64,000 bases of DNA from Nigrospora sphaerica (Eukaryota > Ascomycota > Sordariomycetes > Amphisphaeriales > Apiosporaceae), in NCBI GenBank assembly GCA_018287875.1, contig JAGVVL010000009.1, positions 434,001 to 498,000 on the forward strand, in the 5' to 3' direction. Numbering within the stretch: position 1 is the stretch's first letter; every line of letters begins with the position of its first letter. Positions 1 to 61,801 of the stretch are shown piece after piece. A program made the translations under genes and the position numbers. The notes beneath the pieces were generated by a model, which was not told the DNA's origin, made no database searches, and was given only the letters and a program-made list of their open reading frames with translations.

Positions 1-633
1 TTCAAATGTGGCTTTGTCGGTCGATCCGGGGAATACACGAGCTAGCTTGACGCCTCGCTGCGTGTATGCCGCGAGGATTTGCACCCGATCCTCGCGCTGA
101 AATCGAGCCTTCTGTACCGGCGCCGTCCCTTCCTTAGCCCATCCCTTTCGTCGAAATACGCACGGCTTATCGATGCCCGACTCGTCTATGAACACTAAAT
201 GGTATGACCGGCAGCCTGCCATCTTGAGTCTGTATTGATAGAAGTGTCGCAGCTCGGGCTTCTGCTGTTGCGCGACACGGCGCATCGTCTTCCAGGTCAT
301 TCGGTCGGCCTGCAGCGCCCGGGTGATGCTCGTCACCGAGACGTCTTCGTCAAACTTGTCGCGGACAAAAGCGACCATCTCACGCCGCACCATATCAGGT
401 TCTTTTATAAGCTGGCTACAAAGCGCATCGCGTATCACGGGGGTAATCGTAGGGTCCGGGCCGGTGCGGCTCGAAGGAACGGTCGTGGTGCCGAATCGGG
501 AGTGCGTCGATCGGGCGCGGCGAACGGCGCGTGTCGTGCAGGGAACACTTTCGGCAATGTCTTCGTTCGAGAATCCGCGGAGGATCATAGAGAGGATCTG
601 CTCGTGATGAACTTTGGATAGCCGGGGCGCCAT
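1..633 (-). CDS. Tc1/mariner (IS630-type) transposase, C-terminus outside window
   Basis: Reading the minus strand from the ATG at 631-633 gives 211 open codons up to the window edge. The first 120 or so residues form an HTH region with a basic stretch (motif RAVRRARSTHSRFG). Around residue 148 comes the first catalytic aspartate in the motif FIDESG, followed by the RRKGW...APVQ pattern of Tc1/IS630 transposases. It is clearly related to the transposases at 16788 and 50483 but belongs to another subfamily. The second aspartate and the glutamate lie beyond base 1, so intactness is unknown. The enzyme would excise and reinsert the element at TA dinucleotides in the nucleus. Confidence 0.8.
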   Translation of the reverse strand, partial: MAPRLSKVHHEQILSMILRGFSNEDIAESVPCTTRAVRRARSTHSRFGTTTVPSSRTGPDPTITPVIRDALCSQLIKEPDMVRREMVAFVRDKFDEDVSVTSITRALQADRMTWKTMRRVAQQQKPELRHFYQYRLKMAGCRSYHLVFIDESGIDKPCVFRRKGWAKEGTAPVQKARFQREDRVQILAAYTQRGVKLARVFPGSTDKATFE

Positions 634-897
634 AATAATGCTTTTGATGCTTACGCGCTTTCTAGACTTGTCAGAGTCCGGAAGCGGCTGGCGAACAAGG
701 AAGAAAAACGGTGCCGCAACTAGGTGGTCAGCGCTGTGAGTCATCTTTGGAATGGACCTGAAACCAGCCGCTGTTAGGCGGTGGTCAGCAGCAGTACCTC
801 CCGCTACTAGCGCCGCACTGTCCATAAGCTTACCCCGGGCCCCACATTCCATAAAAGTCCATTTTTTGGACCTGGACGCTGAACATGAACCCCACTG
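1..897 (-). mobile_element. Tc1-like DNA transposon, cut by window edge
   Basis: The element runs off the left edge. Its right end is placed at 897 because the reverse strand there starts CAGTGGGGTTCATGTTCAGC, a Tc1-type terminus, next to a TA at 898-899. The transposase reads inward on the minus strand from 633. The other end is outside the window, so the TIR pair and target duplication cannot be confirmed. The MITE at 39689-40056 has a similar terminus. Confidence 0.6.
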
Positions 898-899
898 TA

Positions 900-11085: not shown

Positions 11086-11690
11086 CAGTAGGTAACAAAA
11101 TCGGCCTCCTATGTGCGCAGCAAGGGGACAAACTCTCCGCTTGGTCCACTTCTATTTATGGATCGTATACCGTGTCCCTGAAAGCTGACCAACTGTGTCA
11201 TCGGGTCGCCCTGTTAGCCTTGGCAGGTACCTGTCATCGCTGTTTGTACTCGAACGCTAGGCCAGATTCGTTCTACTGTAAGTAGTAAGGCAGCGATAAC
11301 TTACAGTCATACAAAAGCCTAGCTATTCACGATATGATGGTTTCGTACATGAACCTCTCTGGATAGTATTCTTTATTACTGGTCCCTCGGTTGTCTATCC
11401 ACTTGGAGTGTTGTGCCATTGGTCGTAGTTGGCCCAGTCTAGCGGGAGATCGTCAGGATCACCTAAGTAGAGGCCCCCCCTTAGGTACTTGCCGGACTAG
11501 TAAGCCATGTGGCGTATCAGAGTGTGGCTTGTTTACCCCGCAGATACAGTCATTGACGTTAGATCGCAGCGTTTGGGAATCACATCAATCGATCCTCATA
11601 GGTAGATGCAATCCACTTCCGGCCCCTGTCCATTTTTGGGCCTTGTCTATGCTGGGTACATATTTTCTAGAAGTTTCTACGTTCTAGGCC
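11086..11690 (+). repeat. Left TIR of element A
   Basis: About 600 bp, inverted relative to 19215-19829. It includes the terminal CAGTAGGTAAC block, an ACAAAAGCCTAGC promoter-like stretch near 11315, and the TCTAGCGGGAGATCGTCAGG block shared by all long TIR copies. It lies beyond the 3' end of the NLR. Between 11690 and 12037 only the NLR 3' region is present, also found in element B (ATGTGTAATATAAGA block). Confidence 0.85.
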
Positions 11691-12037
11691 TGTAAGGATG
11701 TGTAATATAAGATCCGAATGCCTCGCTAAGTGTGGGTATCATATGTCTACCCATGGCCCAACCTAGAGACGATCTTTTTAAATAGTTGGATCCACCGCAA
11801 AATAACCTGCTCGACCGAGTACCTAGTTACGATCACTCGTATAGAATTGTCTCCGGTTAAAATATGTTATTAGGAACATATATCAGAAATAGAAAAACGG
11901 AGAGAAGGCTATAGAAACACAGCTGAGAATATAAATTTATCAGGTCCCTTAGAACCCCCTTTTGCAAACCTATTAGAAAATAAGGTGGAGTTATAAAGGA
12001 CCGAATTCAGAAAGTAAGAGGAATAGGCATTTTTTAC

Positions 12038-15000
12038 CTACGATAGAGTGTCTTGTGCAAATTCCATGATCGTAACCTTTCCTGACCCGTTACCGAGCGC
12101 CACCACATAATTATGCACAGCTGAAAAATCTGGCCGTATATCCGCCGGTAGCCAGAGCAGATTACGATCACCTTGAGTAATCCAGCAACGATCCTCACTG
12201 ATCCCAAGACCAAGGCGAACTCCTCCTGCTTGAGTAGGGTTAGCTAAACGCGGTGAGACAGTGTCCTTAACGATAGGACCCGTGTTTGCAGGTTGTGACC
12301 CGCTAGCTATAGTAATGGTGCCAATGTCAGTGGTAAGTGACGAACTATCCTTACTAAAGGATAGGTCCTGCAAAGTGGTGCCAACATTCGTTGTTTGAAA
12401 ACAAATACCCGTTGCCGCGTTCCAAAGCCGGACGGTCTGGTCGTCCGACGCCGACGCCACGACGGCGCCGTCGGGCGAGAACGCGACCAAGTTGACGCTT
12501 TTGCTATGGCCCTCGAGCGTCTGCAGAGGCGCGCCCGTCGCGGCGTTCCAGTACTGGACGGTCCCGTAGCATAGATTCTTTATGTGAAACCAAATACCGG
12601 TCGCGGCGTTCCAGAGCCGGACGGTCCCGTCGTGCGACGCCGATGCCACGACGGCGCCGTCGGGCGAGAACGCGACCGAGTTGACCGAACCGCTATGGCC
12701 CTTGAGCGTCCGCATAGGCGCGCCCGTCGCGGCGTTCCAGAGCCGAACGGTCTGGTCCCACGACGCCGACGCCACGACGGCGCCGTCGGGCGAGAACGCG
12801 ACCGATGTGACGCTTTCGCTATGGCTCTCGAGCGTCTGCAGAGGCGCGCCCGCCGCCGCGTTCCAGAGCCGGACGGTCCGGTCGCCCGACGCCGACGCCA
12901 CGACGGCGCCGTCGGGCGAGAACGCGACCGAGTTGACTGAAGTGCTATGGCCCTCGAGCGTCCGCAGAGGCGCGCCCGTCGCGGCGTTCCAGAGCCGGAC
13001 GGTCTGGTCCCACGACGCCGACGCCACGACGGCGCCGTCGGGCGAGAACGCGACCGAGTTGACAAACTTGCTATGGCCCTCGAGCGTCTGCAAAGGCGCG
13101 CCCGTCGCCGCGTTCCAGAGCCGAACGGTCCAGTCGCCCGATGCCGACGCCACGACGGCGCCGTCGGGCGAGAACGCGACCGAGTTGACAAAATCGCTAT
13201 GGCCCTCGAGCGTCTGCAGAGGCGCGCCCGTCGCGGCGTTCCAGAGCCGAACGGTCTGGCCCCACGACGCCGACGCCAAGACGGCGCCGTCAGGCGAGAA
13301 CGCGACCGAGTTGACGCTTTTGCTATGGCCCTCGAGCGTCTGCAGAGGCGCGCCCGTCGCGGCGTTCCAGAGCCGAACGGTCTGGTCCCACGACGCCGAC
13401 GCCACGACGGCGCCGTCGGGCGAGAACGCGACCGACCTGACGCTTTCGCTATGGCCCTCGAGCGTCTGCAGAGGCGCGCCCGTCGCCGCGTTCCAGAGCC
13501 GGACGGTCCCGTCGTCCGACGCCGACGCCACGACGGCGCCGTCGGGCGAGAACGCGACCGAGTTGACCAAATCGCTATGGCCCTCGAGCGTCTGTAGAGG
13601 CGCGCCCGTCGCCGCGTTCCACAGCCGGACGGTCCTGTCGCCCGATGCCGACGCCACGACGGCGCCGTCGGGCGAGAACGCGACTGAGTGGACCCAACCG
13701 CTATGACCCTCAAGCGTCCGCTCGCAGGTGTTCCAGCCATCTTCCACCCTTGGCTGCAGCTTTATCCATTTAGGGATTTCGCTACTGAAGGTAGTGCGTA
13801 TAACACTCCTCTTTGGTGCAAACAGGAGACCAGATGAGTATGCTTGGAGAGGTGCAAGTTCAACTCTTAAGGTCGTACTAGAGGCAAAGCGCCGTGCATC
13901 ATGTAAGAAGGCGAGAAGGTAACTGCCGGCATCAGCCTGTAAATGTTAGACCCGGCCGTTCTTTAGCGACACTTAGCACTTACATCAACAAGGTTCCGCA
14001 GTGCGTCCAACATACCTAAGCTTTCCGAAGCTCGTCGTATCCAGCTAAGTGCCTCCAACCAGTGCAGGAAATGGGCGGTAAGAAACGAATACACTTCACC
14101 ACTGTCAGATAGGCTTGCTTTAGACTGTACTACGTGGTGCACCCAGAACCGGCAGGCATATTGCATCTCTAGTCGTAGAGCGTCGCCAATCTGCTTGGGA
14201 GTAACCTCTGTGAAGAGCGTCCCAGGTGCCTGGACTCCACAAATGTCCATGCGTAGCGACTTGTGTAGAAGTCGTAGGCAGTCGGTTGCTAGGCGTTTAT
14301 GGGTGTCCGTTTCGTTGACTGAGAACATATTGCCCGCTGTTGGTGGGCCTAGTAGAAAGTCGCGGAATGAGAGGTGTAAGAGCTTAATAGGTACCTCAGC
14401 TCGTGAGGGCACGCTCAGGACGGAGTGGAGTAGATTCAGGTTCTCCGAGATATCTTCTGAAGTCGTGTCGAGTAACCCTGCGAGAGTAGATATTGAGAGA
14501 GGGTCGGCTAACACCACAATTGAACCGACGACACGACGGAAGTCCCCGAGAGCCTCTTCTTGGTCCGGCGGCGAGAGACCTTCGACGAGTTGTTCGAGGA
14601 TAGGTAAGTATGTCGCATTGAGCTTCGACCCCTCGTTCTTCGTCCGATGCTCTAGGACCTTCTGCAGCTTTCTACGTGGGCCGCCGCATTTCGGATCGGA
14701 TGTGAAACGGCAGACTGTTGCGGCAAAAATGAACAACGGGACTGCCATCTCGACCAGTGTCCGAATGTTTGCCTCGCCCGGCCATCCAGAGGGCAAGTTG
14801 TATTGTTTCCTGATATGTTCCATCTCGTGGACGAGGAAGGCATGTATGTCGTGTTCAATAATTGGCTCGGGCACCTCGTGAAGGATGAAGTCCTGGTACG
14901 TGCCTTGGACAGCGGTGAAGCCAAGACGAATAGGTAACTCGGGTCGACTCGTGAGGAAGACCTTGAGCCTTGGGTGCTGTAGATCTTTCGAGCTGGAGAA

Positions 15001-16275
15001 GAGGCCGATGAGACGCTTGACATCGTCATCGTTGTCGCATTCGTCTAGTGCGTCAATAACAATGAGTAATACCCTGCTATCAGCACTAGCTCTAGATGCC
15101 CTCGAAAGGGGTTCGAGAACAAGCTTCTGAAACTGTTCTTGTATCTTCTTATCCAAGATCGAGGGATCAGTATCGATAGCAGCCTGTATGTGAGGGATGA
15201 TCGCAGGATGCCGTGAAGCGAGCTGAGCTGTGATGGTGGTGAAGAACTTGGAAGCGCTATCTCGATCGCTCTCGCCTCGCTTGAAGAAGAACGTTGCGCC
15301 AAGGTAGCCCTTGACCTGCGCCGAATGTGCCAATGTTCGCGAAATCGTGGATTTACCTGTTCCAGCCATGCCGTTCAGCCAAAACATTCCCTCGGCTGTC
15401 GGATCCTGAATCCATTGGTTAATACCATCGAGGAGCTCGACACGCGTATTTGGGAGGCAGGTCGGGTTATATTCTTCAGCGTGGGAGTCGAAGGAAGCGC
15501 CGTACGCGGTAGGCAACTTCGCAAGCACGGCCGCCCGGGCGTCCTGTATTGCGGATATTTCTCTCCATAACCGAGACATTGCGCTTTTCCCCCCTTCGCC
15601 GTAAATTGGTGGTAGGAAGACACCGAATATTCCGAACAGGGAATACGCTATGTCTTCTTCGCAGGTGGTAACGCGGCCTTTCGACCATGCCATCCGTTCG
15701 CCTATACTGAAATCGGACAGGCTGCCTCCTCGTAGGGCTGCTTCGGGGATGTGTGTGATATCGACGAGCAGTTGTTCGAGGGATCTTCGGTCGCCTAGGC
15801 GCTGGCCCTCCCGAGAGAAGAATTCCACGGAAGCCGGCGCAATCAGCTCTTGAAGTGTCCATCCGCGGGTAAACCACCTGCTCTTTCGGAAATCCAGCTC
15901 CCACGTCGATCGCGATAGTTCGGCGGTTTCATTATCGTGGTCTTTTAAAACATCTGCAAGGTATGCGTAGCATTTGGCCGATTGCTGATACCAGCGAAAC
16001 ATGGAGTTGATGGCCTCTGAAAGTTCGACGCTGTTCGATTTGTCGATACAGCAGGTGTCTATCCAGAAGTAGGGGATGCCGTCGCTGGCGGCTTGTCTTG
16101 CGCAAAAGTCAAGCTTCTGGTAGCCATTCTTATGTCGCCCGGTGCGTTCTGTGATGTCTCGGAACGTGACTTCCTCGTCATTCCAAGTATGCGAAAGTAT
16201 CGCGTACGGGGGGATGCCTTGCGACACTTCGGTGAGGCTGAATTCGCCATCTGTTCGTCGTTGCAGGAGGCGCAT
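12038..16275 (-). CDS. HET-NACHT-WD40 NLR (HNWD type), copy A, 1396 aa
   Basis: Exon 1 runs from 16275 to 13984 and exon 2 from 13936 to 12038. The 47-bp intron (13937-13983) has GTAAGT, a CTAAC branch 10 bases before the end, and ACAG. Splicing keeps frame and restores the linker typical of fungal NACHT-WD proteins (APLQAYSSGLLFAPK). Domains: HET at about 24-153 (YAILSHTW, WIDTCCIDKSN, SRWFTRGWTLQELI); NACHT with P-loop GMAGTGKST at 302-310 and Walker B VLLIVIDALDEC near 402-413; from about 839, ten 42-residue WD40 repeats plus one partial unit; then a 110-residue tail. HNWD proteins such as HET-E/HET-D of Podospora trigger heterokaryon-incompatibility cell death; a role here is inferred. 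No stop or frameshift is seen, so it may be functional. Confidence 0.9.
12400..13722 (-). repeat. Array of 126-bp WD40-coding repeats, copy A
   Basis: Ten near-identical 126-bp units plus one partial unit (12540-12600) sit in NLR exon 2. Differences cluster at the residues just after GHS and around the last ASAS-x-D-x-T positions, while the rest is almost invariant. This pattern is known from HNWD genes, where it reflects unit exchange and selection on the ligand face. Large ORFs on the other strand are shadows of this array. Confidence 0.9.
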
Positions 16276-16787
16276 AGTGATCGATAGCCTCAGCGGCGAG
16301 AATCAAGACGGTTTGGACGGACGGTTTCGATCGTAGAACGTATGGATGGCCTACAGAGGGCCTGGGAAGGCTTGAGGCAAATGTTCTGGATTGCCATAGC
16401 AGGCTGCCACGTCAGCTCAGGCGGCACAAAGCGGGGTTCTTAACAACCGCAGTTTTCTAGCACATTAAGCCGTGCCTCTCTATTCTTGGTCGCAACATCC
16501 CGCAATCACTAAGGCAGACCAAGCTATTTAATTGATTAGTTATATACCAACGGCTCACGAGAGGTCCTGGCGTAAAATGCGTACGCCTTGTGCAGAATAT
16601 AGTACAGTGGGTTGATTTTCGTGCTACGCAGACCCTAGGCTATTTCTGGGCCGAGACACTAGGCTTTTGAGTGCGCTAGTCATAGAAGAGGTGCTGAGGG
16701 GCGGCCTAGGCTTTCCCCGCCCCTTTGAGGCCACATTAAAGGATCTAGAAATCCATCGTGCTTCACCCACCGTCAGCGGAGTCCAGC
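16276..16787. promoter_or_regulatory. Shared divergent 5' region of NLR and transposase
   Basis: The 512 bp between the two ATGs are non-coding and conserved in element B (51474-51969). At 16608 a Tc1-like terminus CAGTGGGTTGATTTTCGTGC follows TA. It shares only CAGT(A/G)GGT with the outer TIR, and no inverted partner was found downstream of the transposase. It may be a fossil end of the original smaller transposon or a transposase binding site. The core promoters were not identified. Confidence 0.5.
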
Positions 16788-17774
16788 ATGGCACCCAACC
16801 TCGCCGCCTCCCAGCACGAACTGGTCCAAGGTATGATCGAAGGAGGCAGCACGACCGATACACAGATTGCGAAAACAGTTGGCTGCAGCACGCGATGCAT
16901 CCGGGCGATTCGAGCGAACCTGCGATGCTTCGGATCCACGACAGCACCCCGAACCACGGTCGGCCGACCTCGATCCATCACGCCGCCCATGCTCGACGCA
17001 CTACGACACCAGCTGCTCACGAAACCCGACATGTACCAACACGAGATGGCCGAGTTCCTGAAGCGCGAGTTTGACGTGATAGTGACCAAGATGAGCATTA
17101 GTAGAGCGCTAGCCTCGGTTGGGTGGTCGAGGAAAACCACACGAAACATAGCGAAAGAGCGAAATGCCGATCTGCGTGATTCCTTTAGCTATGCACTCTC
17201 CGACTTCCGATCGTATCACCTAGTCTACATCGACGAGTCGGGATGCGACCGGCGCGTTGGCGTCCGGCGGACAGGCTGGGCTCCTCTTGGAGTAACGCCG
17301 GCCCAGGTCAGTCGGTTCCATCGCGATGAACGATACCAGATCCTGCCTGCGTATGCACAAGACGGGATCGTGTTTTCGCGCGTCTTTAAGGGATCCACGA
17401 ACAGCGACGTGTTCGAAGAGTTTATACAGGAGCTCCTGCCGCTCTGCGGGAGGTGGCCAGAGCCGAAGTCGGTTCTCATCATGGACAATGCTGGATTCCA
17501 CCAGCCCGAGAGACTGCAACAGCTGTGCAACGACGCCGGTGTTAAGCTACTCTTTTTACCGCCCTACTCACCCGATTTAAATCCCATCGAGGAGTTCTTC
17601 TCCGAAGTTAAAGCATTTATTAAACGAAACTGGCATCTCTACAATGTGCAACAAGACTTCGGCCACTTCCTGGAGTGGTGCGTACACGTTGTCGGATCTA
17701 GGAAGGCCAGTGCGGAAGGTCATTTCCGGCATGCCGGCGTGTCTATTAAGGTACTAGAGAAAAAGGAAGAGTAG
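16788..17774 (+). CDS. Tc1/mariner DD34E transposase of element A (328 aa)
   Basis: The ATG at 16788 is chosen because an upstream GTG-initiated extension is not needed and the related transposase at 633 also starts MAP. An N-terminal HTH region (residues 1-115, with QIAKTVGCSTRCIRAIRANL) precedes a DDE core: D149 in YIDESG, D233 in IMDNAGFHQPE and E268 in YSPDLNPIEEFFSEVK, with 34 residues between the last two. Length is normal for the family and the frame is intact. The last 29 bases overlap the 3' end of the convergent unknown gene at 17746. The nearly identical copy in element B is also intact. It is the best candidate to recognise the outer TIRs, because TA targets are characteristic of this superfamily. 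Confidence 0.9.
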   Translation: MAPNLAASQHELVQGMIEGGSTTDTQIAKTVGCSTRCIRAIRANLRCFGSTTAPRTTVGRPRSITPPMLDALRHQLLTKPDMYQHEMAEFLKREFDVIVTKMSISRALASVGWSRKTTRNIAKERNADLRDSFSYALSDFRSYHLVYIDESGCDRRVGVRRTGWAPLGVTPAQVSRFHRDERYQILPAYAQDGIVFSRVFKGSTNSDVFEEFIQELLPLCGRWPEPKSVLIMDNAGFHQPERLQQLCNDAGVKLLFLPPYSPDLNPIEEFFSEVKAFIKRNWHLYNVQQDFGHFLEWCVHVVGSRKASAEGHFRHAGVSIKVLEKKEE

Positions 17775-19113
17775 AATGAAGACTGTAATCGAATGTTTCC
17801 TGTTGCCGGGCCCACGTCTTGATATCGCGCACAAAGCGCCTAGCGATGCCACGCTTGACACCCTTCTCTACGAGGAACTGGTGCTCGTGCTCTTCATACA
17901 GCTGCTCGAGGTCGAGACCCTCCGCTAGCGTCAGGTCTCGCGCCTTCTGAAACTCCAGCTTCAGATCGTTATCACCAACGTTGGAGCACTGCCACTCGGA
18001 ATACTTTCGGACGGCTTGGTCCCTCAGCCCTACAATCGTGACAGGGCTTCGAGGCGTGCCTGTGCGGCCTTCTTCTAGCGTGCGAGGAAGCTGTGTGGGC
18101 AGGACTACTTGAATTGGCGCGACACCCTTAGTCGGAGATGAGTCGCGCTTTCGCTTTCGTTCGGTCTTCTGCTGTTCCTCTGCGTACAGCTGGTTACGGA
18201 TGTAGTTGGGCACATCATCGTGGCACTGGATAGGATGGCCTAGCTCAATATGCTTGACAAGACTCGTGAGGTGGTGCGTAAGAAGCTTATAGTGCCTCTT
18301 CCCTTCGGTATCGCGCCAGCAGTAGGGCCCGAGATGGCAGGGCGACCCGGGACACCGCATCAGTTGGTAGAGTTCGCTCCAGGTCGACTGTTGTCCTGAG
18401 GCTTGTTCCGCATCGAGCTGCCCCGCCCGGTCGGACAGCATCGACCGTGTCGCCGAGATTCGCCCACGTTTCCTGCTTTGTACAGGGGCAGTGCCCTGTG
18501 TTTCGGACTCGGCGTAGTTAAAAGACACAACCAGCCGGAGGGGCTTGCCCTCAAGGAACAGCGCTGCCCATGCGCAGAGCTGTCTCTCGATGAGCTTCCA
18601 ATCGACGTCGAATCCATCAAAGCATTTCACTAGGTCGCGTTCGGAGCGGTCGCGCACCGAAACCGTTACGTCCGTATCGTCAATCTCGGCCGAGTCTCGT
18701 GCTCGCAGCTTGTTCCTAGCCAGTTTCTCCAGCTTAGGCTGCAAGAACTTCCGCCAGTACACGCCGGGGGCGAGGACGAGGTTAGGTTCGGTATCCTTTC
18801 GCAAGGTTTTTCCGTTGCAGGTGAGCTTCCATTCGATCGAGTAGTGAAGGCAAGTAGGAGGTTGTTCTTCGTACGCCTCGCCTTCATCCCAATCAGCGAG
18901 CTGCAGCAACGGCAGCGTTGCCGGGATGCTGCCGTTTTGTCTGCCGTTAGCGCAGTAAGCAGACTCTCCTACATCTGACCCAATAAACGGCGCAGGCGAT
19001 GATCGCTCGCTCTCCCCCTCTACCCAGGGCAACGAAGATGGCTCAACCGGTTCGTGATACCATGAGTCGAATTCGTCCAGGAAGCTATCCTGGGGGTTAA
19101 CGTGGCGGTCCAT
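17746..19113 (-). CDS. Conserved unknown protein of the NLR element, copy A (455 aa)
   Basis: Starts at the ATG at 19111-19113 and ends in a 29-bp tail-to-tail overlap with the transposase. No signal peptide or transmembrane segment is visible. The N-terminal 70 residues are acidic and Ser-rich. The core (about 85-280) carries motifs IEWKLTCNGKTLRKDTE, YWRKFLQPKLEKLARN, VSVRDRSERDLVKCFDGFDV and a Cys/His cluster (MRCPGSPCHLGPYCW...HHLTSLVKHIELGH) that might bind zinc. A basic patch KRKRD could be a nuclear signal. The last 70 residues (LDLEQLYEEHEHQFLVEKG, GIARRFVRDI) form a helical, SAM-like segment. Similar repeated hypothetical proteins are known to me from other ascomycetes but have no assigned function. 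Its fixed position beside the transposase suggests an accessory role in transposition or regulation (inference). Confidence 0.75.
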   Translation of the reverse strand: MDRHVNPQDSFLDEFDSWYHEPVEPSSLPWVEGESERSSPAPFIGSDVGESAYCANGRQNGSIPATLPLLQLADWDEGEAYEEQPPTCLHYSIEWKLTCNGKTLRKDTEPNLVLAPGVYWRKFLQPKLEKLARNKLRARDSAEIDDTDVTVSVRDRSERDLVKCFDGFDVDWKLIERQLCAWAALFLEGKPLRLVVSFNYAESETQGTAPVQSRKRGRISATRSMLSDRAGQLDAEQASGQQSTWSELYQLMRCPGSPCHLGPYCWRDTEGKRHYKLLTHHLTSLVKHIELGHPIQCHDDVPNYIRNQLYAEEQQKTERKRKRDSSPTKGVAPIQVVLPTQLPRTLEEGRTGTPRSPVTIVGLRDQAVRKYSEWQCSNVGDNDLKLEFQKARDLTLAEGLDLEQLYEEHEHQFLVEKGVKRGIARRFVRDIKTWARQQETFDYSLHSTLPFSLVP

Positions 19114-19214
19114 TTTAGGGCATGGGGAAAAGGAAGGTGGCGACCTGACAGACCCATGGCGGCAAACAGCGCGATAGTCGCAATCGGATCCAGCGTGTGA
19201 CTCATCTTCACTGG

Positions 19215-19829
19215 AATGTAGAAACTTCTAGAAAGCCAGTCAAGAACCTTGACTGACATGGTCTAGATATGGACGTGATCCGAAAATGGATCGTACCTGC
19301 CCAGGGTGTTGGTTGATGAAGGCCAACAACGGATGCGCTCAGTGATTGCAGACGGTCGCGTTCTAACGCTGGACAGCTCTGTCGGCGGGGCAGGCAAATC
19401 ACATAGTCCGCGGATTCAGCGGGTCTGCACTAGGGCTACAGAGGTCTTGACGATCTCCCGCTAGACTAGGGCCAACTAGGCCAATGGTCAAACACGTCCA
19501 AGTGGATAGACAAATGAGGGACTAGGAATTAAGAATATTATTCCGAGAGGGTCATGTACGAAGCCGTCACATCGTGAATAGGCAGGCTTTTATATAGCTG
19601 CAAATCATGGGATGAGACTACGCTACCTTACTGCTTACAGTAGAAAGGATTTGGCCTAGCGCCGGGTACAAATGCGGATGGCAGATACCTGCCAAGGCTG
19701 ACCGGGCGACTGGATTACACAGTTGGTCAGCATTCGAGGGACACAGTATACAATCCAAAAATAGAAGTGGTCCAAGCGGAGACTCTATCTTCGATTGCGC
19801 ACATAGGAGGCCGATTTCGTTACCTACTG
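19215..19829 (-). repeat. Right TIR of element A with embedded promoter
   Basis: Inverted counterpart of 11086-11690. Reading the minus strand inward there is a GCTATATAAAAGCC TATA-like box near 19590, about 480 bases upstream of the ATG at 19113. The TIR therefore probably carries the promoter of the unknown gene. In the opposite TIR the same region points toward the 3' end of the NLR. Confidence 0.8.
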
Positions 19830-39561: not shown

Positions 39562-39688
39562 GGTCGCGTCTTCGCGCCACCTCAGCTCCCTCAATTCACC
39601 ACCTTTCCGGCTTAACGAAAAACCAATATCGCAACAGTGGGATGGCTCCTGCAGCGCTCCGTAAACGATGCCCAGTGAAAAAGCTATA

Positions 39689-48373: not shown

Positions 48374-48385
48374 TTCCTATCTGTA

Positions 48386-49020
48386 CAGTAGGTAACGAAA
48401 TCGGCCTCCTATGTGCGCAGCAAGGGGACAAACTCTCCGCTTGGGCCACCTCTATTTTTGGATCGTATACTGTGTCCCTCGAATGTTGACCAACTGTGTC
48501 ATCGAGTCGCCCGGTCAGCCTTGGCAGGTATCTGCCATCAGCATTTGTACCCGGCGCTAGTCTGAATTCGTCGTTTTTAGGCAGTCAGATAATGTAGTCT
48601 CACCCCATTACTTGCAGCCCTACAAAAGCCTGGCCATTCACACTATCACGGCTTCGTACATGACCCTCACTAGATAATCTTCTTAATTCCTGGTCCCTCA
48701 GTTGTCTATCCACTTGGACGTGTTTTGCCATTGGCCTCAGCTGGCCCCTGTCTAGCGGGAGATCGTCAGGATCACCTCAGTGGCCCTTCTGCGTACCCGC
48801 CGGATCCGCGGATAATGTGGCGTCCAAGGATGTGGCTTGCTTGCTCCACAGACAGCCGTTCAGCTTTGGAACGCGAACGTCTGCAGTCACTGAGCGCATC
48901 CGTTGTTGGCTTTCATCAACCAACACCCGCGTAGGCAGGTACGATCCATCTTCGGATCACGTCCATATCCAAAATATGCCAGCCAAGGTGCTTGATTGGC
49001 TTTCTAGAACTTTCTACATT
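48386..49020 (+). repeat. Left TIR of element B with embedded promoter
   Basis: About 635 bp, homologous to both TIRs of element A and to 57070-57292. It includes a CTACAAAAGCCTGG TATA-like stretch near 48630 and the TCTAGCGGGAGATCGTCAGG block. It reads toward the unknown gene at 49141. Confidence 0.85.
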
Positions 49021-49140
49021 TCAGTGCGAGCCTTGCATTCCAGCGAAGATGAGTCACACGCTGGGTCCGATTGCGACCATCGCGCTGTTTGCCGCCATGG
49101 GTCTGTCAGGTCGCCACCTCTCTTTTCCTCATGCCCCAAA

Positions 49141-50454
49141 ATGGACCGCCACGTTAGCCCCCAGGATAGCTTCCTGGACGAATCTGACTCATGGTATCGC
49201 GAACCGGTTGAGCCATCTTCGCAGCCCTGGGTAGAGGTGGAAAGCGTGCGATCATCGCCTGCGCCATTTGCCGGGTCAGATGTAGGAGAGTCTGCTTACT
49301 GCGCTAACGGCAGACACTACGGCAGCATCCCGGCAACGCTGCCGTTGCTGCAGCTCGCCGATTGGGATGAAGACGAGGTGTACGAAGAACAACCTCCTAC
49401 TTGCCTTCACTACTCGATCGAATGGAAGCTCACCTGCAACGGCAAAACCCTGCGAAAAGATACCGAACCTAACCTCGTCCTCGTCCCCGGCGCGTACTGG
49501 CGGAAGTTCCTGCAGCCCAAGCTGGAGAAACTGGCTAGGAACAAGCTGCGAGCGCGGGACTCGGCCGAGATTGACGATACGGACGTAACGGTTTCGGTGC
49601 GCGACCGCTCCGAACGCGACCTTGTGAAATGCTTCGATGGATTCGACGTCGATTGGAAGCTCATCGAGAGACAGCTCTGCGCGTGGGCAGCGTTGTTTCT
49701 CGAGGGCAAGCCTCTTCGGCTAATTGTCTCTTTCAACTACGCCGAGTCCGAAACACAGGGCACTGCCCCTATCCAAAGCAGGAAACGTGGGCGGATCTCG
49801 GCGACACGATCGATGCTGTCCGACCGGGCGGGGCAGCTCGATGCGGAACAAGCCTCCGGACAACAGTCGACCTGGAGCGAACTCTACCAACTGATGCGGT
49901 GTCCCGGGCCGCCCTGCCATCTTGGGCCCTACTGCTGGCGCGATAACGAAGGGAAGAGGCACTATAAACTTCTTACGCACCATCTCACGAGCCTTGTCAA
50001 GCACATTAAGCAAGGCCATCCTATCCAGTGCCACGATGATGTGCCCAACTACATCCGTAATTAGTTGTACGCAGAGGAACAGCAGAAGACCGAACGAAAG
50101 CGAAAGCGCGATTCGTCTCCGACTCAGGGTGTTGCGCCGATTCAAGTAGTCCTGCCCACACAGCTTCCTCACACGCTAGAAGAAGGGCGCACAGGCACGC
50201 CTCGAAGTCCCGTCACAATTGTAGGGCTGAGGGACCAAGCCGTCCGAGAGTATTGCGAGTGGCAGTGCTCCAACGTCGGTGATAACGATCTGAAGCTGGA
50301 GTTTCAAAAGGCGCGAGACCTAACGCTGGCGGAGGGTCTCGACCTCGAGCAGCTGTATGAAGAGCACGAGCATCAGTTCCTCGTAGAGAAGGGTGTCAAG
50401 CGCGGTATCGCTAGGCGCCTTGTGCGCGACGTCAAGATTTGGGCACGACAATAG
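49141..50454 (+). pseudogene. Conserved unknown protein of the NLR element, copy B, two stops
   Basis: Homologue of the 455-residue protein at 17746, starting at the ATG 49141. Relative to copy A, a CAG codon is TAG at 50062-50064, after about 307 codons, next to two other C-to-T changes. A second glutamine codon near the end is TAG at 50452-50454. The rest of the frame is open and well conserved (YWRKFLQPKLEKLARN, the Cys/His cluster, KRKRD, the SAM-like end). CpA-to-TpA changes are the RIP signature. The shortened product would lack the basic and SAM-like C-terminal parts. Confidence 0.85.
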
Positions 50455-50482
50455 GAGAAAACATTCAATTCCAGTCTTCGTT

Positions 50483-51469
50483 CTACTCTTCATTATTCTC
50501 TAGTACTTCAATAGACACGCCAGCATGCCGGAAATGACCTTCCGCACTGGTCTTCCTAGATCCGACGATGTGTACGCACCACTCTAGGAAGTGGCCGAAG
50601 TCTTGTTGCGCATCGTAGAGATGCCAGTTCCGTTTGATAAATGCTTTCACTTCGGAGAAGAACTCCTCGATTGGATTCAGATCGGGTGAATAGGGCGGCA
50701 AGAAGAGTAGCTTGACACCGGCGTCGTTGCACAGCTGTTGCAGTCTCTCGGGCTGGTGAAATCCAGCGTTATCCATGACGAGAACCGACTTCGGTTCTGG
50801 CCACCTCCCGCAGAGCGGCAGAAGCTCCTGTATAAACTCTTCGAACACGTCGCTGTCTGTGGATCCCTTGAAGACGCGCGAAAACACAATCCCGTCTTGT
50901 GCGTATGCAGGCAGGATCTGGTATCGTTCATCGCGATGGAACCGACTGACCTGAGCTGGCGTCACTCCGAGAGGAGCCCAGCCTGTCCGCCGGACACCAA
51001 CACGCTGATCGCACCCTGACTCGTCGATGTAGACTAGGTGATACGATCGGAAGTCGGAGAGTGCATGGCTATAGAAATCACGTAGATCGGGATTTCGCTC
51101 TTTCGCTATGTTTCGCGTGGTTTTCTTCGACCACCCGACCGAGGCCAGCGCTCTACTAATGCTCATCTTGGTCATTATCACGTCGAACTCGCTTTTCAGG
51201 AACTCGGCCATCTCGTGTTGATACATGTCGGGTTTCGTGAGCAGCCGATTGCGTAATGCGTCGAGCATGGGCGGCGTGATGGATCGAGTTCGGCCGACCG
51301 TGGTTCGGGGTGCTTTCGTGGATCCGAAGCATCGCAGGTTCGCTCGAATCGCCCGAATACATCGCGTGCTGCAACCGACCGTTTTCGCAATCTGTGTATC
51401 AGTAGCGCTGCCTCCTTTAATCATGCCTTGCACCAGTTCGTGTTGAGAGGCGGCGAGATTGGGTGCCAT
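50483..51469 (-). CDS. Tc1/mariner DD34E transposase of element B (328 aa)
   Basis: Starts at the ATG 51467-51469, aligned with copy A. The same catalytic motifs are intact: YIDESG, VMDNAGFHQPE and YSPDLNPIEEFFSEV. Only scattered substitutions separate it from the copy at 16788. It no longer overlaps the unknown gene, because that gene ends earlier through a nonsense codon. Predicted active. Confidence 0.9.
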   Translation of the reverse strand: MAPNLAASQHELVQGMIKGGSATDTQIAKTVGCSTRCIRAIRANLRCFGSTKAPRTTVGRTRSITPPMLDALRNRLLTKPDMYQHEMAEFLKSEFDVIMTKMSISRALASVGWSKKTTRNIAKERNPDLRDFYSHALSDFRSYHLVYIDESGCDQRVGVRRTGWAPLGVTPAQVSRFHRDERYQILPAYAQDGIVFSRVFKGSTDSDVFEEFIQELLPLCGRWPEPKSVLVMDNAGFHQPERLQQLCNDAGVKLLFLPPYSPDLNPIEEFFSEVKAFIKRNWHLYDAQQDFGHFLEWCVHIVGSRKTSAEGHFRHAGVSIEVLENNEE

Positions 51470-51969
51470 GCTGGACTCTGCTGACGGTGGAGGAAGCACG
51501 ATGAATTTCTAGATCCTTCAATGTGGCCTCAAATGGGCGGGGAAAGCCTAGGCCTAGCCTCAGCACCTCTCACCTGACTAGCCTACTGAAAAGCCTATTG
51601 TCTCGGCCCAGGCACTGAGTAGCACCAAAATCAACCCACTGTAATCCTGCATAAGGCGTACGCATTTCACGTCAGGACCTATCGTGAGCAGTTAGTATAT
51701 AATTAATCAATAAATGGCTTGGTCTGCCTCAGCGATTGCGGGATGTTGCGACCAAGAATAGAGGCACGGCTTGACTTGCTAGAAAACCGCTATTGTTAAG
51801 AACCCCGCTTTGTGCCGCCTGGGCTGACAACGTGGCAGCCTGCTATGGCAATCCAGAACATTTGCCTCGAGCCTTCCCAGATCCTCTATAGGCCATCCAT
51901 CCACCCTAGGATGGTCGTAATCGTCCGTCTGAACCGTCCTGATTCTCGAAGCTGAGGCTATCGATCACT

Positions 51970-54900
51970 ATGCGCCTCTTGCAACGACGGACAGATGGCG
52001 AATTCAGCCTCACCGACGTGTCGCAAGACATCCCCCCGTACGCGATACTTTCGCATACTTGGAATGACGAGGAAGTCACATTCCCAGACGTCACAGAACG
52101 CACCTGGCGATACAAGAAAGGCTACCAGAAGCTTGAATTTTGCGCAAAACAAGCCGCCAGCGACGGCATCCCCTACTTTTGGGTGGACACCTGTTGTATC
52201 GATAAATCGAACAGCGTCGAACTTTCCGAGGCCATCAACTCCATGTTTCGCTGGTATCAACAATCGGCCAAATGCTACGTATACCTTACAGACGTTTCGA
52301 AAGACCACGATAGCGAGACCGACGAACCATCACGATCGACATGGGAACTGGATTTCCGAAAGAGCAGGTGGTTTACCCGCGGATGGACACTTCAAGAGTT
52401 GGTTGCGCCGGCTTCCGTAGAGTTCTTCTCTCGGGAGGGCCGGCGCCTAGGCGACCGAAGATCCCTCGAACAACTGGTCGTCGATATCACACACATCCCC
52501 GAAGCAGCCCTGCGAGGAGGCAGCCTGTACGATTTCGGCATAGGCGAACGTATGGCATGGTCGAAAGGCCGCGTTACTACCCGCGAGGAAGACATGGCGT
52601 ATTCCCTCTTCGGAATATTCGGTGTCTTTCTACCACCAATCTACGGCGAAGGGGGGAAAAGCGCGATGTCTCGGTTATGGAGAGAGATATCCGCAATACA
52701 GGACTCCCGGGCGGCCGTGCTTATGAAGCTGCCTACCGCGTACGGCGCTGCCTTCGATTCCCACGCCGAAGAACATAACCCGACCTGCCTCCCCAATACG
52801 CGCGTCGAGCTCCTCCACGATATCAACCAATGGATCCAGGATCCGACAACCGAGGGGATGTTCTGGCTGAACGGCATGGCTGGAACGGGCAAATCAACGA
52901 TTTCGCGAACATTAGCACACTCGGCGCAGGTCAAGGGCTACCTCGGCGCAACGTTCTTCTTTAAGCGAGGCGAGAGCGATCGAGATGGCGCTTCTAAGTT
53001 CTTCACAACCATCACTGCTCAGCTCGCTTCACGCTATCCGGCGATCGTCCCTCACATACAAGCTGCTATCGATACCGATCCCTCGATCTTTCATAAGAAG
53101 ATGCAAGAACAGTTTCAGAAGCTTATTCTCGAGCCCCTTTCGAGGGCATCTAGAGTCAGTGCTGATGGCAGCATATTACTAATTATTATTGACGCACTAG
53201 ACGAATGCGACAATAATGACGATGTTAAGCGCCTTATCGGCCTTTTCTCTAACGCGAAAGATCTACAGCATCTAAGACTCAAAGTCTTCCTCACGAGCCG
53301 ACCCGAGTTACCTATTCGTCTCGGCTTCACTGCAGTCCAAGGCACGTACCAGGATCTCATCCTTCACGAGGTGCCTGAACTGATTATCGAACACGACATA
53401 CATGCCTTCCTCGTCCACGAGATGGAACACATCAGGAAACAATACAACTTGCCCTTTGGATGGCCGGGTGAGGCAAACATTCGGACACTAGTCGAGATGT
53501 CAGTGCCGTTGTTCATTTTCGCCGCAACAGTCTGCCGTTTCACATCCGATCCTAAATGCGGCGGCCCACGCAGAAAGTTGCAGAAGGTCCTGGAGCACCG
53601 AACGAAGAACGAGGGGTCAAAGCTCAATGCGACATACCTGCCTATCCTCGAACAACTCATCGAAGGTCTCTCGCCGTCGGACCAAGAAGAGGCTCTCGGG
53701 GACTTCCGTCGTGTCGTCGGTTCAATTGTGGTGTTAGCCGACCCTCTCTCAACATCTGCCCTCGCAGGGTTACTCGACTCGGCTCCAGAGGATGTCTCGG
53801 AGAACCTGAATCTACTCCACTCCGTCCTGAGCGTGCCCTTGCGAGCTGAGGTACCTATCAAGCTCTTGCACCTCTCATTCCGCGACTTTCTGCTAGACCC
53901 AACAACAACGGGCAATATGTTCCTGATTAACGAAACGGACACCCATAAACGCCTAGCAACAGACTGCCTACGACTTCTGCATAAGTCGTTACGCATGGAC
54001 ATCTGTGGAGTCCAGGCACCTGGGACGCTCTTCACGGAGGTTACTCCTAAGCAGATCGGCGACGCTCTACGACTAGAGATACAATATGCCTGCCGGTTCT
54101 GGGTGCACCATATAGTACAGTCTAAAGCAAGCCTATCTGACAGTAGCGAAGTATATTCGTTTCTTACCGCCCATTTCCTGCACTGGTTAGAGGCACTCAG
54201 CTGGATACGACGAGCTTCGGAAAGCTTAGGCATGTTAGACGTACTGCGAGACCTTGTCGACGTAAGTGCTAATCGTTACTTCAGAACGGCTGGATCTAAC
54301 ATATACAGACTAATGTTGGCAGCCGTCTTCTTGCCTTCCTATACGATGCGCGGCGCTTTACCTCTAGTACGATCTTCAGAGTTGAGCTCGCACCTCTGCA
54401 AGTATACTCATCAGGTCTCCTGTTTGCACCAAAAAGCAGTGTTATACACACTACCTTCACTAGCGAAATTCCTTATTGGATAACGTTACAGCCAAGGGTG
54501 GAGGATGCCTGGGACGCCTGCGAGCGGACGCTTGAGGGCCATAGCGATTGGGTCTGCTCGGTCGCGTTCTCTCCCGACGGCGCCGTTATAGCGTCGGCGT
54601 CGCACGACCACACCGTCTGGCTCTGGAACGCCGCGACGGGCACGCTTATCGAGACGCTCGAGGGCCATAGCAGTATAGTCAGCTCAGTCGCGTTCTCGCC
54701 CGACGGCGCTATCGTGGCGTCGGCGTCAGAGGACCACACCGTCCGGCTCTGGAACGCCGCGACGGGCGTGCTTATACAGACGCTCGAGGGCCATAGCAGT
54801 ATGGTTAACTCAGTCGCGTTCTCGCCCGACGGCGCCGTCGTAGCGTCGGCGTCGCGGGACCACACTATCCGGCTTTGGAACGCCGTAACAGGCGCGCCTA

Positions 54901-56522
54901 TACAGACGCTTAAGGGCTATAACCGTCCAGTTGACTGGGTTGCGTTCTTACCCGACGGCGCTGTCGTGGCGTCGGAGTTAGGGGTCTTCACCGTCCAGCT
55001 CTGGAACGCTGTGACGGGCGCGCCTATGCAGACGCTCGAGGGCCATAGCGGATGGGTCAGCTCGGTCGCGTTCTCTCCCGACGGCGCCGTCGTGGCGTCG
55101 GCGTCGGATGACCACACCGTCCGGCTCTGGGACGCGGCGACGGGCGCACCTCTGCAGACGCTCGAGGGCCATAGCAGTTCGGTTACATCAGTCGCGTTCT
55201 CGCCCGACGGCGCCGTCGTGGCGTCGGCGTCGATGGATCACACCGTCCGGCTTTGGAGCGCCGCGACGGGCGCGCCTATGCAGACGCTCGTGGGCCATAA
55301 CGGTGGCATAATCTCGGTCGCGTTCTCGCCCGACGGTGCTGTCGTGGCGTCGGCGTCGTACGACCACACCGTCCGGCTCTGGAACGCCGCGACGGGCGCG
55401 CCCATGCAGACGCTCGAGGGCCATAGCAGTTCGGTCAACTCGGTCGCGTTCTTGCCCAACGGCGCTGTCGTGACGTCGGCGGATTACGACCACGCCGTCC
55501 GGCTCTGGAACGCCGCGACGGGCGCGCCCATGCAAACGCTCGAGGGCCATAGCGATGACATTATCTCAGTCGCGTTCTCGCCCGACGGCGCTGTCGTGGC
55601 GTCGGCGTCGTCCGACCACACCGTCCGGCTCTGGAACGCCGCGACGGGCGCGCCTATGCAAACGCTCGAGGGCCATAGCGATTTGGTCTTCTCGGTCGCG
55701 TTCTCGCCCGACGGCGCTGTCGTGGCGTCGGCGTCGCGGGACCACACCGTCCGGCTCTGGAACGCCGCGACGGGCGCGCCTATGCAAACGCTCGAGGGCC
55801 ATAGCGATATCATCATCTCGGTCGCGTTCTCGCCCGACGGCGCTGTCGTGGCGTCGGCGTCGTCCGACCACACCGTCCGGCTCTGGGACGCCGCGACGGG
55901 CGCGCCTCTGCAGACGCTTGAGGGCCATAGCAGTTTGGTTAGATCAGTCGCGTTCTCGCCCGACGGCGCCGTCGTGGCGTCGGCGTCGTACGACCAGACC
56001 GTCCGGCTCTGGGACGCGGCGACGGGCGCGCCTCTGCAGACGCTCGAGGGCCATAGCGATGGCATCCACTCGTTCGCGTTCTCTCCCGACGGCGCTGTCG
56101 TGGCGTCGGCGTCGCACGACCACACCGTCCGGCTCTGGAACTCCGCGACGGGTATTTGCTTTCAAACAACAAATGTCGGCGCCATTTTGCAGAACCTAGC
56201 CTTTAGTGAGGATGGCTCGTCACTTACCACTGACATTGGCACTATTGCTATAGCTAGCGGGACCCAACCTGCGAGCACCAGTCCTGTCGCTATAGACACT
56301 GTCTCGTCACGTTTGGCCAAACCTACGCAATCAGGAGGATGTCGCCTTGGTCTTAGTATCAGTGAGGATCGTTGCTGGATTACTCAAGGTGATCGTAATC
56401 TACTTTGGCTACCTGCAGATATTCGGCCAGGCAGATCAGCTGTGCATGGCTCTATGGTAGCTCTCGGCAACGGGTCAGGAAAGGTTACGATCATGCAATT
56501 TGCAACACTACCTTGTAGGTAA
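51970..56522 (+). CDS. HET-NACHT-WD40 NLR (HNWD type), copy B, 1501 aa
   Basis: Exon 1 is 51970-54261 and exon 2 is 54309-56522. The 47-bp intron (54262-54308) has GTAAGT, CTAAC and ACAG and sits at the same codon as in copy A, phase 0. HET domain at 24-153 (YAILSHTW, WVDTCCIDKSN, SRWFTRGWTLQELV), NACHT with GMAGTGKST at 302-310 and Walker B ILLIIIDALDEC, and thirteen 42-residue WD40 repeats from about 839. The tail matches copy A (ISEDRCWITQGDRNLLWLP). The fourth repeat is the most divergent (LKGYNRPVDWVAFLPDG). No disabling change is seen. A possible role is nonself recognition and induction of cell death, by analogy to HET-E/HET-D/HET-R. Confidence 0.9.
54531..56156 (+). repeat. Array of 126-bp WD40-coding repeats, copy B
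   Basis: Thirteen units of 126 bp. Variation is concentrated in the three to four residues after GHS and in the residue before D-H/Q-T-V. Many units are identical over most of their length, indicating recent unit exchange. Antisense and +1 ORFs across this array are shadows. Confidence 0.9.
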
Positions 56523-56561
56523 GAAATGCCTACTCTCGTCTTGCTTTCTGAATGTGGTCAT

Positions 56562-57069
56562 TTACAATCTTACCTTGTTCTCCAATAACTCTGCAAACGG
56601 GGGTTCTAAGGGACTTGATAAATTTATATTATCAGCTCTATTTTCATAGCTTTCTCTCCGTTTCTGTATTTCTGATATCCTGCTAAGGAACCTGTCGCAC
56701 TGCAGTGGCTGTGGGATGCGAGGCTCAAGTTGTCCATTAAAAGAAACAAGAGAAATGATCTTTAGGTACATTAGTACATATAATAGCACAGGACCCTGTC
56801 CTTAGGCGAGTCCTGGTCTGTGGGGAGGAACCACGTGACTCGGCAGGCCAATGCTCAGATGCCAAGACTTGTGAATAGCCTCATTTACGACAGAACTTCG
56901 ACCAGAGGCAATTCTATTCGAGTTATCGTGACCAGTTACTTGGTTAGGTACTTTCTTGCGGTGGATCCAACCATTTAGGAGATCATCTCTGGGTTGGGGC
57001 GTGGAGAACATGTAATGCCTACACTCAACGAGGCATTCGGGTCTTATATTACACATTCTCATAGACTAG
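56562..57069. other. NLR 3' region of element B
   Basis: No gene. It shares with 11695-12010 (inverted) the blocks ATGTGTAATATAAGACCCG and TAAATTTATATTATCAG-like sequence, so it belongs to the element rather than to host DNA. Confidence 0.6.
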
Positions 57070-57292
57070 ACTGTAAAGGCTGTGCTACCTCAGTGCTTGC
57101 AGCAAGACGAATTCAGTTTAGTGTGGAGTACAAATAGTACTAACAGGTACCTGCTAAAGCAGAAAGGATGACTTGATGGCACAGTTAGTCAGCATTCAAC
57201 GGACACGGTATACGATCCAAAAATAGAAGTGGCCCAAGCGGAGAGTTTGTCCCCTTGCTGCGCACATAGGAGGCCGATTTCGTTACCTACTG
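57070..57292 (-). repeat. Right TIR of element B
   Basis: About 220 bp, inverted to 48386-48610. It is shorter than the other three TIRs, as the promoter-bearing inner part seen at 11086-11690 is absent. The terminal 60 bases match 48386 onward almost perfectly. Confidence 0.88.
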
Positions 57293-57417
57293 TACCAACA
57301 TTGACCACCAAATTAGAGCGAACATAGGGACCGGCAATCGACTGTTGCAATATTGGTTTTTCGTTAAGCCAGAAAGGTGGTGAATTGAGCGAGTTGAGGT
57401 GGCGCAAAGACGCGACC

Positions 57418-61700: not shown

Positions 61701-61801
61701 GCGAGCTAGCAGGCATAGCCAGTGCCTTGGATTCGCTGCCGAGGATGCGGTACCGCAACATCATACTGCTAACACGGAACAAAGCAGCTGTGCTTACATT
61801 A

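What the first reader, a model, noticed from the sequence alone, without database searches (positions are those of the whole stretch)
48386..57292. An 8.9-kb TIR-bounded DNA element that carries a complete HET-NACHT-WD40 NLR gene
Both ends are inverted copies starting CAGTAGGTAACGAAATCGGC and are flanked by TA. Between them lie an intact DD34E transposase, a conserved unknown gene and an intact 1501-residue NLR. Tc1/mariner elements normally contain one gene and are 1-2 kb, so an NLR as internal cargo is unusual. If real, incompatibility or defence genes are being spread by a cut-and-paste transposon, and the NLR might favour retention of the element. It is not a Starship by what I can see: no tyrosine-recombinase captain is recognisable and both ends have TIRs.
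Basis: partly seen in the sequence, partly recalled or inferred. Interest (0 to 1): 0.95.

Follow-up and report, generated by a model that had tools for sequence, protein, structure and literature searches.

The report
Transposon carrying a fungal immune-receptor gene
In this fungal genome a cut-and-paste transposon of the Tc1/mariner type carries, besides its transposase and one accessory gene, a complete self/non-self receptor gene, and copies of the package sit at several unrelated places, so receptor genes here appear to be spread and remixed by a transposon.

Summary
Confirmed and extended. Window 48386-57292 (B) is a TIR-bounded element at a TA site with 190-bp TIRs, a DD34E transposase, a conserved accessory gene (ORF2; one in-frame stop in B, open in A) and a 1501-residue HET-NACHT-WD40 NLR. 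Genome-wide, 33 TIR tips give six convergent pairs 1-20 kb apart (A-F); all six hold an NLR of this family, flanks are unrelated and 11 of 12 ends are at TA. The other 21 tips are MITE ends, one relic, or single. dN/dS between copies is 0.11-0.21 for all three genes. Copies carry two effector domains (HET or HeLo-like) and two NACHT clades; the WD40 repeats vary at five sites matching Podospora HNWD sites. A diverged second element (C18) has the same gene order with a NACHT-ankyrin NLR inside its own TIRs, but 7 of 8 other transposase/ORF2 loci have no NACHT within 5 kb. Precedents exist: ToxTA, a TA-site element with an NLR-like gene, and Starships carrying NLRs. So: a new variant of a known kind. 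Transposition, NLR function and strain polymorphism were not testable.

The parts
48386..48572 (+). Element B, left terminal inverted repeat (tip CAGT, preceded by TA)
   Evidence: arm 48383-48572, 85% complementary to 57106-57295
57106..57292 (-). Element B, right terminal inverted repeat (followed by TA)
49141..50454 (+). Element B ORF2 (accessory gene), interrupted by an in-frame TAG at 50062-50064
   Evidence: family with 286 relatives
50483..51469 (-). Element B DD34E transposase, 328 aa, open
51970..54261 (+). Element B NLR exon 1: HET + NACHT
54262..54308 (+). Predicted NLR intron, 47 nt, same length in copy A
   Evidence: prediction, no RNA evidence
54309..56522 (+). Element B NLR exon 2: WD40 repeats of 42 aa (13 by the pattern) and C-terminal tail
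11086..19829 (-). Element A: second full copy, opposite orientation
12038..16275 (-). Element A NLR (HET-NACHT-WD40), 1396 aa with one predicted 47-nt intron
16788..17774 (+). Element A DD34E transposase, 328 aa, open
17746..19113 (-). Element A ORF2, 455 aa, open
1..899 (-). Right part of a diverged transposase/ORF2 core (C33:432283-434909) with its own TIR end TACAGTGGGG; a relative of the B core, nearest NACHT 14 kb away

Best explanation
A and B are copies of a Tc1/mariner-type (DD34E, TA target) transposon whose full form in this genome has three genes: ORF2, transposase and an NLR. The transposase is inferred to act on the ~190-bp TIRs and to cut and paste everything between them into TA sites. 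The NLR rides as cargo and is multiplied and dispersed. Its copies were kept under purifying selection as receptors and diverged partly by exchange of modules: HET or HeLo-like effector, two NACHT clades, and WD40 units with five hypervariable sites. Loss of the transposase gene leaves TIR + NLR elements (F) and, further reduced, MITEs. Shown by sequence: boundaries, unit structure, six dispersed TIR-paired copies, purifying selection, module assortment, and a second, diverged element with the same gene order and a NACHT-ankyrin NLR. Inferred: transposition by this transposase, and that the NLR acts in self/non-self recognition or defence, with cell death as output.
For: Six of six convergent TIR-tip pairs 1-20 kb apart hold an NLR of this family (contents). 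Flanks of 1 kb are unrelated in all 15 pairings on both sides (best local scores 21-34; one shuffle per pairing 19-28; for D the right stretch used began about 190 bp inside the element). Homology to B stops at the tips in A and C. 11 of 12 ends are TA. A/B dS: ORF2 0.20, transposase 0.29, NACHT 0.28, HET 0.21 (SE 0.03-0.04). dN/dS among copies A, B, C, F is 0.11-0.21, Fisher p at most 5e-8. F has TIRs and open frames of 873 and 689 codons for the two NLR exons but no transposase or ORF2. WD40: 56 units, entropy above 1.8 bits only at positions 8, 9, 11, 27, 29; with a constant shift of 3 these are five of the seven high-dN/dS sites of Podospora HNWD (10, 11, 12, 14, 30, 32, 39; passage). Second element C18:1423087-1431535: 222-bp TIRs at 78%, TA at both ends, NLR, transposase and ORF2 in the same relative order.
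Against: No transposition, excision footprint or empty site was seen: 0 of 5 joined flanks. Copies are not young (dS 0.19-0.33); C, D, E and F have a broken, remnant or absent transposase, and ORF2 is broken in B and C. Divergence is not uniform: A and C are closer to each other than to B in the left 640 bp (0.09 against 0.16) and the transposase (0.19 against 0.29) but not in NACHT (0.26; B/C 0.23), which points to exchange between copies and weakens a simple tree of whole units; non-coding divergence A/B (0.12-0.16) is below dS. Five related NLR loci (C18:642085, C12:4873462, C18:461038, C33:410464, C1:1604) show no TIR tip within 3 mismatches, so part of the family may duplicate otherwise or be the source. 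Of 8 other transposase/ORF2 loci only one has a NACHT within 5 kb. A second TIR pair of the C18 family (C12:8768114-8775727) holds an ORF2 fragment and no PF24883 match. Two close relatives of the C18 NLR lie at places without a TIR hit. Purifying selection between copies cannot say whether host or element benefits.
Confidence: 0.85

Rival explanations
1. The NLRs are an ordinary dispersed host gene family; transposons or MITEs of one family happened to insert on both sides of some of them, and the copies arose by segmental duplication.
For: TIR-like ends occur alone and as MITEs; some NLRs of the family lack TIR tips; the genome duplicates segments (MITE flanks shared).
Against: Flanks of A-F are unrelated; A, B and C align from tip to tip apart from replaced or inserted stretches; all six long pairs contain an NLR of the family. 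A double insertion could still have created the first unit.
Confidence: 0.06
2. NLRs were captured several times independently by elements sharing TIRs, rather than once followed by transposition.
For: D has a different NACHT clade (70% to B, 88% to C18:461038) and a HeLo-like domain next to a 94% transposase remnant. The C18 element has a NACHT-ankyrin NLR, and its transposase is not in the supported A/B + P0126 group of the tree.
Against: A, B, C, E and F share NACHT clade I and the WD40 tail, and A, B, C have all three genes with dS of 0.19-0.29. Exchange between copies explains D as well. Independent capture is likely for the C18 element but not for A, B, C, F.
Confidence: 0.25
3. The element is cargo or debris of a Starship.
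For: Starships carry NLRs, and one carries a TA-site element (passages); the genome has DUF3435 genes.
Against: No DUF3435 match in the window; the nearest to any copy is about 66 kb from F. Each copy has its own TIRs, TA sites and unrelated flanks.
Confidence: 0.02
4. The NLR is a non-functional passenger, conserved only because copies are recent.
For: The HeLo-like domain of C has one stop and that of E three.
Against: NLR dS between copies is 0.21-0.33 with dN/dS 0.14-0.21; NLR frames are open over 1396 and 1501 codons in A and B; diversity is concentrated at five WD40 sites.
Confidence: 0.08

Closest known systems
ToxTA (formerly ToxhAT) of Bipolaris sorokiniana and other wheat pathogens
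   Same: TIR-bounded DNA transposon with TA target duplication, placed near Tc1/mariner, whose cargo includes a Patatin-TPR gene described as an NLR-family member (passages of PMC6737239 and PMC12506042)
   Different: 14 kb, eight ORFs, 74-bp TIRs, regarded as non-autonomous; here the full element encodes its own DD34E transposase, is about 9 kb with three genes, the NLR is HET-NACHT-WD40, and six TIR-paired copies carry an NLR of the family
Starships carrying NLRs (a SesA-NACHT-WD40 in Gaeumannomyces; three NLRs in Sanctuary)
   Same: Mobile elements moving fungal NLR genes (passages of PMC12134995 and PMC12506042)
   Different: Tyrosine-recombinase captain and very large size; no DUF3435 in or beside the copies here
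HNWD family of Podospora anserina (het-e, het-d, het-r)
   Same: NACHT-WD40 NLRs with HET domain, nearly identical WD40 units with hypervariable sites at matching spacing, two NACHT clades with shared WD40 (passages of PMC1805685, PMC2873952, PMC12222747)
   Different: No carrier transposon appears in the passages seen: 'transposon' occurs once in PMC1805685 (reference list), 'transpos' 0 times in PMC2873952; the single match in PMC12222747 was not displayed. Function of the present NLR is untested
Tc1 family transposons (DD34E)
   Same: DD34E (Tc1 signature in a passage of PMC7325037), TA site, TIRs
   Different: Usually one transposase gene and 1-3 kb (recalled); here ORF2 and an NLR are added and TIRs are about 190-222 bp

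Membership tests
Tc1/mariner superfamily, Tc1-like | DDE transposase with D-D-34-E | tested here: met
   spacing 34; DDE_3 1.5e-30, weak HTH hits
Tc1/mariner superfamily, Tc1-like | TA target site and TIRs | tested here: met
   11 of 12 ends of six copies at TA, one TG; TIR arms 190 nt in B
Tc1/mariner superfamily, Tc1-like | Transposition by the encoded transposase | not testable with these tools
   no strain series, no assay; 0 of 5 empty sites in own genome
HNWD-type NLR | HET-NACHT-WD40 order | tested here: met
   Pfam for B; A and F by alignment. C, D and E have a HeLo-like domain instead of HET
HNWD-type NLR | 42-residue WD40 units of high internal conservation with hypervariable sites | tested here: met
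   56 units; five sites above 1.8 bits match five of seven HNWD sites, sites 10 and 39 do not vary here; within-copy identity 0.923 against 0.911 between, 0 of 300 shuffles
HNWD-type NLR | Controls heterokaryon incompatibility | not testable with these tools
   needs strains
Starship | DUF3435 tyrosine-recombinase captain at one edge | tested here: not met
   31 DUF3435 matches genome-wide, none in the window, nearest about 66 kb from copy F
ToxTA | Shared sequence with ToxTA | not tested
   no ToxTA sequence was fetched; the comparison rests on passages
Known fold for ORF2 | Match to a solved structure | tested here: inconclusive

The most novel reading that the evidence does not exclude
A lineage of autonomous three-gene Tc1/mariner elements uses NLRs as a standing third gene: it repeatedly takes up NLRs of different build (HET-NACHT-WD40, HeLo-NACHT-WD40, NACHT-ankyrin), spreads them to new sites, and lets the copies swap effector, NACHT and repeat modules. 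Each insertion would then be a new, presence/absence-polymorphic recognition locus, and the NLR would reward nuclei that keep the element or punish fusion with those that lack it.
Probability: 0.2. Interest if true: 0.93.

Novelty: new variant of a known kind. Interest (0 to 1): 0.7.

Why it matters
How families of near-identical allorecognition receptors such as HNWD come to lie scattered over fungal chromosomes is not explained in the passages read here. A compact transposon with an NLR in each of its six long copies gives a concrete vehicle for dispersal and, by creating dispersed homologous copies, for module shuffling. It makes a test possible: look for these TIRs, or relics of them, around NLRs in population genomes, and ask whether element insertions coincide with incompatibility polymorphism. 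It also shows a widespread two-gene fungal Tc1 core (transposase plus ORF2) as a platform that takes cargo.

Tried and rejected
Empty sites: joined flanks of A, B, C, E and F searched in the own genome; only separate flank matches, 0 of 5 junctions spanned, 40 of 85 candidates scored. D was left out; its right end was misplaced at that stage (2182860) and was corrected to 2183052.

General NLR linkage of the transposase/ORF2 lineage: of 8 loci outside the A-F family only the C18 core has a PF24883 match within 5 kb; the chance for a random site on that contig is 6.5-9.2% for 1-2 kb. Six weaker transposase fragments were not in that count; one of them (C18:1165559-1165984) lies about 2.7 kb from a NACHT at C18:1168717. 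The link was kept for the C18 core because its NLR proved to lie inside TIRs, after searches with shorter flanks had found no TIR.

No tool gave fungal contigs beyond this genome.

RIP: transitions are 71% of A/B differences with a mild excess before A; not strong enough to call RIP.

ORF2 function by fold: no assignable match; the listed chains share a small beta arrangement and were given no weight.

C11 core: a 343-bp stretch beside its ORF2 is 90% like DNA just upstream of the C18:642085 NLR; no TIR could be defined for either; left unexplained.

Literature: ten searches (one search found nothing). Among the listed papers none, by title and start of abstract, describes an autonomous Tc1/mariner element with a NACHT NLR. 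Passages of 12 papers were seen, none was read whole. Subscription papers and most preprints are missing from the library. [quoted passage not shown]
Full report
The window lies at C33:434001-498000 of an unnamed 51.6-Mb genome in 33 contigs. The closest named relatives of the NLR are from Apiospora (57%) and Xylariaceae (56%), and of ORF2 from Apiospora marii (59%), so the fungus probably belongs in or near Xylariales (inference); no tool named it.

Observation. The exact 20-base end occurs at 48386 and, inverted, at 57273-57292, each beside TA, with no matches in shuffles. The inverted arms extend over 190 nt at 85%. Inside are ORF2 (plus), a DD34E transposase (minus, 328 aa, open) and an NLR (plus, 1501 aa after a predicted 47-nt intron). 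ORF2 of B has one in-frame TAG; that of A has none. A (11086-19829) is the same unit in the opposite orientation, with an NLR of 1396 aa.

Copies. A 190-bp TIR query gave 40 hits, the 40 scored of 52 candidates. A 21-base tip pattern with up to 3 mismatches gave 33 tips and 0 for the reversed control. Pairing a plus tip with the next minus tip within 20 kb, 12 tips form six pairs more than 1 kb apart: A C33:445085-453830, B C33:482385-491293, C C13:3420691-3430147, D C33:2175153-2183052, E C5:2879915-2884478, F C18:126979-132482 (4.6 to 9.5 kb). Ten tips form five MITEs of 504-559 bp, four of which share at least one flank with another and so are partly copies by segmental duplication; one belongs to an NLR relic (G, C18:982553-987882) and ten are single, some of them with a more diverged second end about 500 bp away. 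All six long pairs contain an NLR of the family. A, B and C also have transposase and ORF2 (in C interrupted and with stops); D has a transposase remnant; E and F have neither. The 1-kb flanks are unrelated in all 15 pairings (for D the right stretch began about 190 bp inside the element because its end was still misplaced). Eleven of twelve ends are at TA; one end of E reads TG. No empty site was found (0 of 5).

Divergence and selection. A/B synonymous divergence is 0.20 in ORF2, 0.29 in the transposase, 0.28 in NACHT and 0.21 in HET (SE 0.03-0.04); A/C is 0.21, 0.19 and 0.26; B/C is 0.20, 0.29 and 0.23. So all three genes have been separating for a similar, long time, but not uniformly: A and C are closer in the transposase and in the left 640 bp (0.09 against 0.16 for A/B and B/C) and not in NACHT, which suggests exchange between copies. 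Non-coding divergence A/B is lower, 0.12-0.16. dN/dS between copies is 0.14-0.17 for ORF2, 0.11-0.20 for the transposase, 0.14-0.20 for NACHT and 0.14-0.21 for HET. The NLR was thus kept as a working coding sequence on the lineages that separate the copies.

Modules. Two N-terminal domains and two NACHT clades occur (the clade labels I and II are mine): HET with NACHT I in A, B, F; HeLo-like (PF17111; 25.1 bits in D, just under its cut-off of 27.2) with NACHT I in C and E; HeLo-like with NACHT II in D and in two loci without a TIR tip (C12, C18:461038); HET with NACHT II in two loci without a TIR tip (C18:642085, C1:1604). Three of the four combinations are inside TIR pairs. The HeLo-like domain of C has one stop and that of E three. 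The WD40 units of A, B, C, D and F (56 units; E and units with stops were left out) are nearly invariant except positions 8, 9, 11, 27 and 29, whose spacing equals HNWD sites 11, 12, 14, 30 and 32 (passage of PMC12222747); HNWD sites 10 and 39 do not vary here. Outside these five sites units are slightly more alike within than between copies (0.923 against 0.911; 0 of 300 shuffles), a weak sign of homogenisation within genes.

Core and relatives. ORF2 has 286 relatives among 7989 scored candidates and the transposase 1930 among 2784. Thus transposase plus ORF2 is a widespread two-gene core. In this genome three diverged cores exist. One, on C18, is bounded by 222-bp TIRs (78%) at 1423087-1431535 with TA at both ends and contains a NACHT plus ankyrin NLR upstream of the transposase, the same order as in B. 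In a 61-row tree the A/B transposases group with P0126 (97/98) and the place of the C18 one is unresolved; its NLR has two close relatives (80-86%) at places without TIR hits, so this NLR was probably taken up separately. Against a general rule: another TIR pair of that family on C12 has an ORF2 fragment and no PF24883 match, and 7 of 8 transposase/ORF2 loci outside the A-F family have no NACHT within 5 kb. The C33 core at the left edge of the window has a HeLo-like protein gene about 0.3 kb beyond ORF2 (C33:431028-431973; PigL_N 5.8e-20), but no left TIR was found.

ORF2 protein. The model is good in parts (pLDDT 78, pTM 0.43); residues 78-204 have a beta-grasp-like arrangement with no significant match. 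Cysteines 254, 259, 265 and histidine 274 are invariant in 42 sequences, which would fit a metal site; this is inference.

Known systems. ToxTA is a TA-site, TIR-bounded element carrying a Patatin-TPR gene counted with the NLRs and considered non-autonomous (passages of PMC6737239 and PMC12506042). A Starship with a SesA-NACHT-WD40 gene is described in PMC12134995 (passage). PMC9815663 states that fungal NLRs can be carried by transposons (passage). HNWD papers describe concerted evolution of WD40 units and two NACHT clades (passages of PMC1805685, PMC2873952, PMC12222747). So the kind, a cargo transposon with an NLR, is known. The autonomous three-gene Tc1/mariner form with an HNWD-like NLR in each long copy, and a second family with another NLR, did not appear in the listings of the ten searches made.

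Verdict. The unit is real, was mobile by all sequence signs available, and carries a selected receptor gene. Whether it still moves, what the NLR recognises and who benefits remain open.

Noticed in passing
window 1-899 (C33:432283-434909): A diverged transposase/ORF2 core (48% to the B transposase, 33% to the A ORF2) ends in the window with TIR end TACAGTGGGGTTCATG; the same end occurs at C33:154846 and C1:7645566. A HeLo-like (PigL_N) protein gene lies beside its ORF2.
   Followed up: partly
window 25712-27576 and 61799-63664: Two recent-looking Fot1/pogo-type elements (DDE_1 + HTH_Tnp_Tc5) with TIRs of 64 bp at 97% and 53 bp at 100%; ends of the second resemble, by eye, the inverted repeats at 1918-1963 and 3736-3781.
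   Followed up: no
window 57385-60427 and 38260-39594: A non-LTR retrotransposon (zinc knuckle, endonuclease, start of reverse transcriptase) begins just right of element B; a protein of the same length with the same zinc-knuckle match lies at 38260-39594 in the other orientation (not compared directly). Gypsy-type genes lie at 43336-46309.
   Followed up: no
C11:73609-74167, C13:337087-337645, C33:174153-174711, C11:728896-729454: 559-bp MITEs with these TIRs, 98-99% identical, in duplicated segments; similar ends recur at about 2-kb spacing on C32:79831-84234 and C13:1206500-1210907.
   Followed up: partly
C18:641702-642045 and C11:82964-83306: A 343-bp sequence, 90% identical, found only at these two places in the search: just upstream of a HET-NACHT-WD40 NLR and just upstream of the ORF2 of a diverged core.
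   Followed up: partly
C11:83708-84535: Hydrolase-like reading frames beside the C11 ORF2 that resemble SesB-type NLR effector domains by eye; Pfam gave no hit.
   Followed up: partly
C18 contig: NACHT genes are clustered: 22 of 91 PF24883 matches are on the 1.6-Mb contig C18 (13.6 per Mb). A weak transposase fragment at C18:1165559 lies about 2.7 kb from one of them.
   Followed up: no
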